From a virus, in the IMG/VR virus record IMGVR_UViG_3300032954_000018, positions 1 to 54,164 of that record: 54,164 nucleotides of DNA. The stretch is one strand, 5' to 3'. The notes below the pieces were generated by a model, which saw only the letters and a program-made list of their open reading frames with translations, was not told the origin of the DNA and ran no database searches. A program made the position numbers and the translations under genes. Shown in pieces: positions 348 to 31,532 of the stretch; positions within the stretch are counted from its first letter, which is position 1, and the number at the start of each line of letters is the position of its first letter.

Positions 348-370
348 ACCTAAACTTTATTGAATATCGA

Positions 371-425
371 GGAATAAGCGGAACAGTTTGTTTTCTTTTT
401 CATAGAAGTAACTGCTTCCTTCGCC
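371..425 (-). ncRNA. Structured RNA module, unit 1 of a tandem pair
   Basis: Minus-strand order is GGCGAAGGAA, CAGTTACTTCT, an A-rich loop, AACTG, GTTCCGCTTATTCC. CAGTT (410-414) pairs with AACTG (384-388). It is the first of two tandem copies downstream of a promoter-like sequence at 438-466. The rest of the 181-443 gap holds no credible protein frame. Not a known RNA family to me. Confidence 0.5.
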
Positions 426-437
426 ATCGATAAATAC

Positions 438-26638: not shown

Positions 26639-26914
26639 GTGGAACTATCACTATTCAAGCCCTCCCCTGAAAAAAATTATTGGATTATGAGTTTTCCTTA
26701 CTACTATACGTTTGTTTTCTATGGTACGGAAACCGAAGCTAAAGAGCTATTCATCCATAAATGCGAGTGGGAAGGCACCGGGACCATGCGAAAAGCCGAT
26801 CCTAGTAACGAACAGGATTCCGCTCTGGTCCGAGAAGAAATCATTAATGTACGGCTAGACAGAGACGCGGGAATCCCTAACCTGCCTTTCTTGCCGGGAC
26901 GAGGTTGGTTATGA
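26639..26914 (+). CDS. Hypothetical protein, 91 aa
   Basis: GTG 26639 with GGGGGT upstream. YYYTFVFYGTETEAKELFIHKCEWEG is a small alpha/beta sequence. Coupled to the release-factor-like gene. Unknown. Confidence 0.65.
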   Translation: MELSLFKPSPEKNYWIMSFPYYYTFVFYGTETEAKELFIHKCEWEGTGTMRKADPSNEQDSALVREEIINVRLDRDAGIPNLPFLPGRGWL

Positions 26915-27273
26915 AGCCAAAAACTATATCGAACGATGGTGCAAAACCAGTCTTGACCCTAACAGCTAAAGACTTTGTTTTCCAGACTTTCTGTACTGGC
27001 GGTAAAGGCGGTCAGCACCGGAATGCTAAACAGAATGGTGTGCGGTGTATCCATCCCCCTTCCGGGGCTAGAGGAGAGCACAGAGACGGGCGAGATCAAC
27101 ATCTAAATAAACGGGAAGCTTTCCGTAAATGTGCAGAATCTCCTGAAATGCAAGCATGGTTGAAGATCGAAACACTTAAAAGAGTGGGAAAAATAAGAGA
27201 TATCGAAAGAGCGGTAGAGGAGCAAATGGCTCCTGAAAACTTAAAAATAGAGGAAATTGATGGAAGTTGTTAA
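26911..27273 (+). CDS. Class I release-factor-like GGQ protein, 120 aa
   Basis: GGQ at residues 33-35 in TGGKGGQHRN, then VRCIHPPSGARGEHRDGRDQH and a helical basic tail, match the RF-1 catalytic domain. It lacks the codon-recognition domain, so it resembles ArfB/YaeJ or PrfH-type peptidyl-tRNA hydrolases that rescue stalled or damaged ribosomes. Usual ArfB length is about 140 aa. Start ATG 26911 with GAGG. It lies between a tRNA and metabolic genes, fitting phage control of translation. Confidence 0.88.
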   Translation: MKPKTISNDGAKPVLTLTAKDFVFQTFCTGGKGGQHRNAKQNGVRCIHPPSGARGEHRDGRDQHLNKREAFRKCAESPEMQAWLKIETLKRVGKIRDIERAVEEQMAPENLKIEEIDGSC

Positions 27274-28863: not shown

Positions 28864-29105
28864 TGCGCAACCAAGATACTTTTTCCAAAAATCTTTATGT
28901 GGTAGTTTGGGCAGGCTGTACTATTCCACTTTCTGGAAGAAGTTTTGATAACGAAGAAGAAGCAATAGAGATGTTTAAAGTTTGGATAGATCAACCGGGA
29001 ATACGGATTGAACGGATGATGGCGGCTTTCGTGTTTGATACTCTTTTTACAAAAACTACTTTTGAGAAATATATTGATGAAAACAATAGAAAATCTGGAA
29101 GCTGA
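28863..29105 (+). CDS. Hypothetical protein, 80 aa
   Basis: TAATG overlap upstream. LYVVVWAGCTIPLSG followed by helices. Its 3' end is overlapped by the HNH gene, which may have inserted here. Confidence 0.6.
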   Translation: MRNQDTFSKNLYVVVWAGCTIPLSGRSFDNEEEAIEMFKVWIDQPGIRIERMMAAFVFDTLFTKTTFEKYIDENNRKSGS

Positions 29106-29520
29106 AGAATGGAGACAAGTTAAAAATAGTCTTGATCTTTATCAAGTATCAAATAAAGGAAGAATAAAGAGAATATGTGAAACCCATGAACGATTGCTTA
29201 AAACCCCTCCTACTGCGTTAGGATATCTAAGATTTAATATTAGCATAAACAATAAATCAAAATCTAAGTACGTTCACGTAGCCGTAGCAGAAGCTTTTAT
29301 ACCAAATCCTGAGAAAAAACCCACAGTGAATCACAAAGACGGAGACAAGACTAACAATTGCGTAGGCAATTTAGAATGGGCTACCCGAAGTGAAAACAGC
29401 CAACATGCTTGGGACACCGGATTGTTTAGTCACGAAAAAATGAAATCTTCTCAATTATTAAGGCGGAAAAAAGAAAAAAGTTTGAAAGAAAACCTCATAA
29501 CACAGATTTTGGGTGTATAA
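29077..29520 (+). CDS. HNH homing endonuclease (NUMOD4), 147 aa
   Basis: EEWRQVKNSLDLYQVSNKGRIKR is a NUMOD4 DNA-binding motif; VNHKDGDKTNNCVGNLEWAT is the HNH catalytic core with the conserved NLEW. Mobile, free-standing endonuclease. It ends right at the noncoding tRNA-like cluster, and its stop codon lies in a TATAAT-like -10 (29516-29521). Confidence 0.85.
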   Translation: MKTIENLEAEEWRQVKNSLDLYQVSNKGRIKRICETHERLLKTPPTALGYLRFNISINNKSKSKYVHVAVAEAFIPNPEKKPTVNHKDGDKTNNCVGNLEWATRSENSQHAWDTGLFSHEKMKSSQLLRRKKEKSLKENLITQILGV

Positions 29521-29715
29521 TAGATACTAGGAGAAAATATGACGTAGAAGAATGTGAAATACTTCTATATATTTGTTACTTCCCGCATGTAGGTTCGACT
29601 CCTACCAGACTGTTGTAAGGTCTGTTCTCCTGTATCGGAAAAGGGAACCCGTAAGGGTGCTGAAAGATTAATTCCTGTATCTTGTGTTCTCCTATTTAAG
29701 TTTCGAGTAGCGATA

Positions 29716-29810
29716 GTTACAATTCCATCATTAGTTCGAATCTAATAAGCCCCCCAAAATTTATGGGGCTTACGCCTAGTTGGTTAGGCAGTATTGTAGC
29801 GCAAGTTCTC
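29716..29810 (+). tRNA. Circularly permuted tRNA-like gene, candidate 1
   Basis: Order: ACAAT (anticodon-stem 3' strand, 29719-29723), variable TCCATC, T-arm ATTAG-TTCGAAT-CTAAT (29730-29746), acceptor 3' strand AAGCCCC (29747-29753) followed by CCA, short linker, acceptor 5' strand GGGGCTT (29765-29771), D-arm GCCT-AGTTGGTT-AGGC (29774-29789), ATTGT (anticodon-stem 5' strand). The 3' half precedes the 5' half; all four stems pair. Weak points: positions 8-9 read AC not TA, the junction before the anticodon stem is 3 nt, and no anticodon can be assigned. Confidence 0.5.
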
Positions 29811-29932
29811 TCGGACAGTTTCGCAGGCCGTTTTGGTGATTCTGAGCGTTTTGCAAACGGGAGCAGCCCGATATAGCTGCTTAAGTTATAACCGCTTCGG
29901 CGGATTCAAATAGCGATAAAAACAGTTACTTC

Positions 29933-30012
29933 TTTCGCCGCCATCTTTGGCGAAATAGCTCAGCGGTAGAGCATCCACTTCATACGTGGAAGGTCGTGGG
30001 TTCGAATCCCAT
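29933..30012 (+). tRNA. Permuted tRNA-like gene with CAU anticodon, candidate 2
   Basis: TTTCGCC-G-CCA (29933-29943), a complete acceptor 3' strand with discriminator and CCA, then TCTTT, then GGCGAAA (29949-29955), perfectly complementary. The body is canonical: TA, D-arm GCTC-AGCGGTA-GAGC, anticodon arm TCCAC-TTCATAC-GTGGA (CAU), variable AGGTC, T-arm GTGGG-TTCGAAT-CCCAT ending 30012. What follows is TTTCAGT, which pairs at only four of seven positions. So the proper 3' acceptor strand lies upstream of the 5' end. Confidence 0.6.
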
Positions 30013-30050
30013 TTTCAGTTCTGTTTTGCCTGTTCTTTTGAATAATTTTC

Positions 30051-30096
30051 GGGAGTGTCCCTCAAGACTATCGGGTAAAAACCGAAACTCCCACCA
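30051..30096 (+). ncRNA. Minimal tRNA-like hairpin ending in ACCA
   Basis: GGGAGT (30051-30056) pairs with ACTCCC (30087-30092), followed by ACCA; between them TCGG-GTAAAAA-CCGA forms a 7-nt-loop arm in the T-arm position. Only 46 nt, with no anticodon arm. A minihelix-like element; may be chance or a remnant. Confidence 0.35.
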
Positions 30097-30113
30097 AGTT
30101 TGGGTAGTGTTCA

Positions 30114-30185
30114 TTACGAGTACATCAACTGGATAGATGAATTGTCATAGACAATGTGTTGCCGATTCAATCCCGGCCTCGTATG
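30114..30185 (+). tRNA. Degenerate or atypical tRNA
   Basis: Acceptor TACGAG/CTCGTA (6 bp), TA, D-arm CATC-AACTGGATA-GATG, anticodon region ATTG-TCATAGA-CAAT (4-bp stem, CAU out of register), T-arm GCCGA-TTCAATC-CCGGC with one mismatch. No CCA. Total 72 nt, one base short before the anticodon arm. It may be a decayed Met-type tRNA. Confidence 0.45.
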
Positions 30186-30243
30186 TTTTGTTCTCCCAAT
30201 AATTTTAAAGCCTGAGTAAATCCAAAGTGTAGTGGCTTTAATA

Positions 30244-30325
30244 GCAAGTAGTGAAAGTGTCAGTTACTTCTATATTTACTCAAAAATAAACAGAAAAAAC
30301 AACTGTCACGCTAGTTCTCTTGCAA
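30244..30325 (+). ncRNA. Structured RNA module, plus-strand copy
   Basis: GTGTCAGTTACTTCTATATT, an A-rich loop and AACTGTCACGCTAGTTCTC. CAGTT pairs with AACTG and the flanking GTG with CAC, with one mismatch. The boxes match the two minus-strand units at 277-425, including the CGCTAGTTC 3' box. Confidence 0.45.
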
Positions 30326-30520
30326 CAATTTAACCCGACTCGCGTTGGGTTTTCCCCGGCTCCGAGGGAGAGTGAGATCGCAGGTACTACCTGCAAAAGA
30401 TGCTTACCAATCGGGCAAATCTTCAGGGGCGCAATGCCCCGAATCAATACGTTCCGGAACGTAATAAATCCTGAGGTTGATCTATCGATTAATCTATCCT
30501 ACCTTTAAGAGGCTACTCTC

Positions 30521-31169: not shown

Positions 31170-31532
31170 ATGGCGGTACGTAAATATTCAGACCGAAAAG
31201 CCTACCTAATACGTAAAGTATCAGAACGTAGACAAGAACTTAGGAAAAAGATCGTAAATGTTCTTGGAGGTAAGTGTATTTTTTGTGGATATTCATCCTA
31301 CGTAGGAGCGTTAAACGCACATCACATAGACCCTTCGACCAAAACTTTTGGCCTCAGTAATAAGGGATTATGTAGAAGTTGGGCGAAGATTTTATCAGAG
31401 CTAAAGAAGTGTGTTTTACTTTGTTCTAATTGTCATGCTGAAATTCATGCCGGACTGAAAATAATTCCGGAAGAAGATATACAATCGGCAAAAGCAAAAG
31501 TAGAAGCCGCAGAAAAATCTCTGAAGGAGTAA
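31170..31532 (+). CDS. HNH endonuclease, 120 aa
   Basis: CIFCGYS (C-x2-C), ALNAHHIDP (HH of HNH), then CVLLCSNCHAEIHAG carry the zinc ligands and final H. Basic N-terminal helix. Free-standing mobile or packaging-associated HNH. Confidence 0.85.
   Translation: MAVRKYSDRKAYLIRKVSERRQELRKKIVNVLGGKCIFCGYSSYVGALNAHHIDPSTKTFGLSNKGLCRSWAKILSELKKCVLLCSNCHAEIHAGLKIIPEEDIQSAKAKVEAAEKSLKE

What the first reader, a model, noticed from the sequence alone, without database searches (positions are those of the whole stretch)
29575..30325. Repeated modules bounded by GTTACTTC and GTTCTC boxes
The tRNA-like parts sit between recurring boxes: GTTAC(TTC) before (29575, 29716, 29925, 30263) and GTTCT(C) after (29624, 29686, 29805, 30190, 30314). 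GCGATA precedes two of the 5' boxes. Constant borders with variable contents look like a modular RNA element, perhaps a splicing or ligation unit that carries the permuted tRNAs.
Basis: partly seen in the sequence, partly recalled or inferred. Interest (0 to 1): 0.75.

Follow-up and report, generated by a model that had tools for sequence, protein, structure and literature searches.

The report
Phage Y RNA array mimicking tRNAs
The repeated boxes are the two strands of a conserved stem in phage-encoded Y RNAs, small RNAs known to partner the Ro60/Rsr protein; several of these carry rearranged copies of a tRNA at their tip, so they are not introns or ligation units.

Summary
The boxes are real, but they are not splice borders. 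GTTAC(TTC) and GTTCT(C) lie on opposite strands of one folded stem: P1, a conserved asymmetric internal loop (U-R-S-YGAWA / GCNNGUU-S'-Y'), then P2. The window has seven copies, with different P1 and P2 sequences that still pair. Four are on + (29702-30324). Three more are on - at the left end (197-432).

A covariance model built only from these copies plus one relative finds the same element in other phages beside rsr (Ro60/TROVE) genes, and 46 times in 31 of 53 bacterial rsr loci, always on the rsr strand and nearly always just upstream. One phage copy also matches Rfam YrlA below its cut-off. The element is therefore the Rsr-linked stem of bacterial-type Y RNAs.

The "permuted tRNAs" are tRNA-mimic heads. 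M2 has the standard YrlA order (T arm, closed acceptor hairpin, D arm). M3 carries a complete cloverleaf with a CAU anticodon arm, opened between T arm and acceptor. M4 is joined through its acceptor stem. M5 and h1-h3 are plain hairpins.

Y RNAs and phage Rsr/Y RNAs are already known. The mixed-topology array, without a detectable rsr in this 54-kb fragment, is a new variant.

The parts
29702..29815 (+). M2: YrlA-type Y RNA. P1 29702-29707/29810-29815, internal loop 29708-29715/29801-29809, P2 29716-29723/29793-29800, T arm 29730-29746, closed acceptor hairpin 29747-29771, D arm 29774-29789
29904..30043 (+). M3: Y RNA stem enclosing a complete permuted cloverleaf. P1 29904-29910/30037-30043, internal loop 29911-29918/30028-30036, P2 29919-29925/30021-30027, UUACUUC 29926-29932, acceptor hairpin with GCCA in its loop 29933-29955, D arm 29958-29972, CAU anticodon arm 29974-29990, T arm 29996-30012
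   Evidence: ARAGORN/Rfam call 29949-30021 a tRNA-Met in linear order
30100..30199 (+). M4: Y RNA stem joined to a normal-order tRNA-like body through its acceptor stem (TACGAG/CTCGTA); the anticodon hairpin has only a 3-5 nt loop and there is no CCA
30243..30324 (+). M5: hairpin-type Y RNA without tRNA-like module
   Evidence: 54.2 bits, E 5e-12; part of the training set
365..432 (-). h1: hairpin-type Y RNA
   Evidence: 50.7 bits
271..354 (-). h2: hairpin-type Y RNA
   Evidence: 49.1 bits
197..262 (-). h3: hairpin-type Y RNA
   Evidence: 47.7 bits
29578..29691 (+). M1 (uncertain): ACTTC, T arm 29589-29605 and an acceptor-like hairpin 29606-29624, but no recognisable Rsr-type stem; possibly a decayed Y RNA or tRNA remnant

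Best explanation
The region is an array of phage-encoded Y RNAs. Each has a constant terminal stem (P1, conserved asymmetric internal loop, P2) that most likely binds a Ro60/Rsr ring protein, and a variable head. M2, M3 and M4 have tRNA-like heads in three different connections (opened at the anticodon arm, opened between T arm and acceptor, joined through the acceptor). M5 and three further copies at the left end are plain hairpins. Inferred working: the phage transcribes the Y RNAs in infection and they load Rsr (made by the host, or by the phage outside this fragment). The heads then recruit or block tRNA-handling enzymes, PNPase or anticodon nucleases, steering RNA decay and quality control. 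Shown here: the fold, its conservation and its linkage to rsr in homologues. Inferred: Rsr binding, expression and effect.
For: The paired-border motif exceeds chance. RNAfold independently gives P1-loop-P2 enclosing the tRNA arms. In the founding set 86% of cells pair, with changes on both sides at 14 of 17 pairs (partly circular because copies were chosen by pairing). Independent tests follow. Model R1 from 8 phage copies finds copies in other viral contigs retrieved by sequence pattern alone. TROVE is present in 11 of 16 motif-positive viral records against 1 of 9 motif-negative ones (Fisher p 0.011). In all 11 the motif lies within about 1.5 kb of the TROVE match. R1 hits 46 times at E<0.01 in 31 of 53 bacterial rsr loci, all on the rsr strand, 45 upstream and 1 just downstream. 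Across 45 bacterial copies 89.9% of cells pair, covariation score 0.69 against 0.23 shuffled and about 0.1 slid. L041 225-364 matches RF02553 YrlA end to end, 30.6 bits, E 3e-5. M2 has the T arm, closed acceptor, D arm order shared by 31 Y RNAs in these loci.
Against: No TROVE gene is detectable in the 54-kb window. No window copy scores as YrlA, and L041 is below the Rfam cut-off (69). Three other motif-positive viral records (27, 152 and 275 kb) also lack a TROVE hit. R1 does not recover M2 and M3 in situ, perhaps because of their long inserts. M4's fold is not better than shuffles (z -0.6). No expression or binding data.
Confidence: 0.9

Rival explanations
1. Permuted intron-exon or ligation unit: the boxes are splice borders and the permuted tRNAs are circularised and matured into working tRNAs.
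For: M2 and M3 are genuine circular permutations: doubling the sequence lets ARAGORN close tRNAs across the junction, with no such hits in three shuffles. M3 keeps 7 acceptor pairs and CCA.
Against: No intron family in Rfam matches. Spacers of roughly 45-90 nt leave no room for intron halves. The same borders enclose plain hairpins (M5, h1-h3) and normal-order M4, where nothing needs splicing. Homologues sit beside rsr.
Confidence: 0.03
2. Decayed tRNA genes rearranged by duplication and deletion, with boxes as leftover spacer sequence.
For: Relatives have ordinary tRNA arrays at the same place. M1 and M4 look degenerate.
Against: P1 and P2 covary across phages and bacteria, which decay does not produce. 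The arrangement recurs upstream of rsr in distant bacteria.
Confidence: 0.04
3. The stem is an RNA element for another partner (for example RNase III processing or antitermination) that merely co-occurs with rsr.
For: Hairpins lie in intergenic runs upstream of genes; no direct Rsr-binding evidence here.
Against: Tight, strand-specific placement next to rsr in phages and bacteria and YrlA-type tRNA-like heads.
Confidence: 0.05

Closest known systems
YrlA (Rfam RF02553), bacterial Y RNA
   Same: Terminal stem plus tRNA-like head with T arm, closed acceptor hairpin and D arm in that order (M2, L041); linked to rsr in relatives. Published description: basal stem tethers Rsr, head resembles D, T and acceptor arms (PMC8394870).
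   Different: Sequence too far for the Rfam cut-off. Copies come in arrays mixing tRNA-like and hairpin forms. M3 adds a complete anticodon arm and is opened between T arm and acceptor; M4 is joined through the acceptor.
Y RNAs/Rsr of phages (mycobacteriophages; Listeria phage CKA15; TROVE in jumbo phages)
   Same: Phage-encoded Y RNAs or Rsr already reported (PMC12282133 citing Chen 2014; PMC7824862; PMC7765460).
   Different: Those reports, as far as read here, do not describe this internal-loop consensus, the arrays or the M3/M4 topologies. Here no rsr is seen in the fragment.
Circularly permuted tRNA genes (red algae, archaea)
   Same: tRNA parts in circularly permuted order (from general knowledge, not compared here).
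   Different: Here the permuted module is closed by a conserved Y RNA stem; no sign of a splicing motif.

Membership tests
Bacterial Y RNA (Rsr-associated) | Terminal stem with conserved internal loop that binds Rsr/Ro60: structure and conservation | tested here: met
Bacterial Y RNA (Rsr-associated) | Physical binding to Rsr | not testable with these tools
   Needs gel shift or pull-down
Bacterial Y RNA (Rsr-associated) | Gene next to rsr, in homologous copies | tested here: met
   11 phage loci, 31 of 53 bacterial loci
Bacterial Y RNA (Rsr-associated) | rsr in the same genome as the window copies | tested here: inconclusive
   No TROVE in the 54-kb record, which may be a fragment; host rsr unknown
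YrlA subfamily | tRNA-like head: T arm, closed acceptor hairpin, D arm | tested here: met
   M2; not M5/h1-h3, which are hairpin type; M3 and M4 use other orders
YrlA subfamily (Rfam RF02553) | Score above Rfam gathering cut-off (69 bits) | tested here: not met
   L041 30.6 bits; window copies no usable hit. Not filed as an RF02553 member, only as a Y RNA relative
Group I intron / permuted intron-exon | Intron core halves flanking the exon | tested here: not met
   No Rfam hit, also at permissive threshold; spacers too short
Functional tRNA-Met (ARAGORN/Rfam call at 29949-30021) | Paired acceptor stem in linear order | tested here: not met
   GGCGAAA pairs perfectly with TTTCGCC upstream, poorly with the downstream strand; MFE fold uses the upstream strand

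The most novel reading that the evidence does not exclude
M3 and similar Y RNAs are complete circularly permuted tRNAs tethered to an Rsr ring. They could be trimmed at the GCCA loop by RNase P and exonucleases into a two-piece, possibly chargeable tRNA, or show an intact anticodon loop as a decoy for host anticodon nucleases during infection.
Probability: 0.15. Interest if true: 0.85.

Novelty: new variant of a known kind. Interest (0 to 1): 0.62.

Why it matters
It gives a simple, searchable signature (UAGYGAWA / GCNNGUUCU between two covarying helices) for a broad set of Rsr-linked Y RNAs that Rfam's YrlA model misses at its cut-off, in phages and in Acidobacteria, Alphaproteobacteria and others. 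It shows phages carrying runs of these RNAs, and heads that mimic the whole tRNA, sometimes with an anticodon loop. This makes testable what phage Y RNAs do to host RNA decay and tRNA-cleaving defences, and warns that tRNA finders can mis-call Y RNA heads as tRNAs.

Tried and rejected
Group I/permuted intron: no Rfam support, spacers too short. Hammerhead, hairpin and other known ribozymes: no Rfam match. DNA-level repeat element: P1/P2 sequences differ between copies while pairing is kept. Scan with the relatives' conserved 17-mer CTCCGCGCAGTCGCTAC returned three unrelated contigs, L028-L030. Reading M1 as a permuted tRNA-Asn rested on one weak ARAGORN solution and was dropped. A first regex for D arms was greedy and miscounted; redone. 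The key Y RNA papers (PMC4201824, PMC6047535, PMC10870794, PMC6281776) are not held, so the published Rsr-binding consensus could not be compared directly.

Full report
Observation. The boxes are present as described. Simple counts of GTTCTC are unremarkable window-wide (38 vs 29 expected). Four such pairs follow one another in 29401-30400 (TTCGAG/CTCGGA, ATTCAAA/TTTGAAT, TTGGG/CCCAA, GCAAG/CTTGC) against 0.017 expected. Each also has an inner helix. A further run of three lies on the minus strand at 197-432. The consensus is P1 - U-R-S-YGAWA(G) - P2 - (U)ACUUC ... P2' - (C)GCNNGUU-S'-Y' - P1'. Two GTTCTC boxes (29624, 29686) and the GTTAC at 29575 do not fit, and the GTTCT of M3 (30032) was missed.

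Fold. RNAfold gives this architecture unaided for M2 and M3 (z -2.6 and -2.4) and for M4 (fold as described, but z only -0.6). In M2 the stem takes the place of the anticodon arm and encloses T arm, closed acceptor hairpin and D arm. In M3 it encloses acceptor hairpin (7 pairs, loop GCCATCTTT), D arm, CAU anticodon arm and T arm. In M4 the stem continues into the acceptor stem of a normal-order tRNA-like body. M5 and h1-h3 end in simple loops.

Homologues. A covariance model R1 was built from the seven window copies and one from relative L002; covariation in that set is partly circular because copies were picked by pairing. Two sequence-pattern scans brought in viral contigs in which R1 found 28 matches, most of them strong; contigs retrieved by chance pattern matches gave none. 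One copy, L041 225-364, aligned with Rfam YrlA over its full length (30.6 bits, E 3e-5, cut-off 69). That suggested a test: are rsr (TROVE) genes nearby? TROVE occurs in 11 of 16 motif-positive viral records and 1 of 9 motif-negative ones (Fisher p 0.011), and in all 11 the motif lies within about 1.5 kb of the TROVE match. Relatives of the window without the motif (112, 88 and 78 kb) also lack TROVE in the two that were tested (L003 and L011).

Bacteria. Phage Rsr proteins were used to fetch 80 bacterial rsr loci. R1, never trained on bacteria, hit 46 times at E<0.01 in 31 of the 53 loci searched, every time on the rsr strand; 45 upstream of rsr and one just downstream in L117. Covariation across 45 of these copies is strong: 97.5% of P1 cells pair; score 0.69 vs 0.23 for shuffles and about 0.1 when slid. 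These copies were found with the structured model, so the alignment leans towards the structure, but the strand and placement beside rsr do not depend on it. Rfam at its cut-off reports none of the 20 loci tried as YrlA, and mis-calls two heads as tRNA.

Heads. In these loci Y RNA heads with both arms have the D arm after the T arm (31 cases; three other 'D before T' calls are spurious matches overlapping ACTTC), the YrlA order; M3 is the only clear exception by that search, and M4 is a second different arrangement in the window. Some phage and bacterial heads also show an anticodon-arm-like hairpin just upstream of the T arm with 7-nt loops such as CUGUUAA and CUCAUAA and an AGGUC-like variable loop (U33 in 23 cases vs 5.6 in shuffles), and some keep CCA after the acceptor strand (8 of 58). 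The published YrlA description names D, T and acceptor arms only (PMC8394870).

Function. From literature: Y RNA tethers Rsr to PNPase (RYPER; PMC8394870, PMC7790460); a tRNA-like domain as competitive inhibitor of an anticodon nuclease has been proposed (PMC7790460); phage Rsr/Y RNAs have been suspected (PMC12282133, PMC7824862). I infer that this phage uses its Y RNAs to load Rsr and present tRNA mimics. Rsr source is unknown: none in the fragment. Binding and expression are untested.

Verdict. Real, well conserved, identified as Y RNAs with high confidence; not a splicing unit. New variant of a known kind because of array organisation and the M3/M4 head topologies.

Noticed in passing
L041 225-364(-); L039, L043, L065; L098, L102, L156, L136, L158: Rsr-linked Y RNA heads appear to include an anticodon-arm-like hairpin (7-nt loop, U33) between UACUUC and the T arm, giving a complete permuted cloverleaf opened near position 26/27.
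   Followed up: partly
window 29747-29771; L074; L131, L136, L158, L159: Loops of the closed acceptor hairpins of some Y RNAs keep a CCA at or near the tRNA 3'-end position.
   Followed up: partly
L002 4300-4470, L003 4500-4660, L005 2525-2620, L004 360-430: Two conserved RNA-like blocks (CCCGCCCTTAAGTGGACGGG; GGCTCCGCGCAGTCGCTAC) lie in the tRNA arrays of relatives, with flanks that look complementary; no Rfam match in L002.
   Followed up: partly
window 30354-30370; L002 4730-4750; L003 4705-4725: CCCCGGYTCCGAGGGAG is conserved between window and relatives downstream of the array; function unknown.
   Followed up: no
window 26905-27273: Small RF-1-domain protein (release-factor-like, PHROG 3122), upstream of the array; possible ribosome-rescue factor.
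   Followed up: partly
window 29556-29577: Start of an ORF (KYFYIFV) shared with L002 near 3820 appears cut off at the first GTTAC box.
   Followed up: no
L084 2857-2907, L128 2826-2879: Rfam tRNA model calls partial tRNAs inside Y RNA heads upstream of rsr: likely false tRNA calls.
   Followed up: yes
window 29035-29520 and 31170-31532: Two HNH endonuclease genes (the first with NUMOD4) flank the array.
   Followed up: partly
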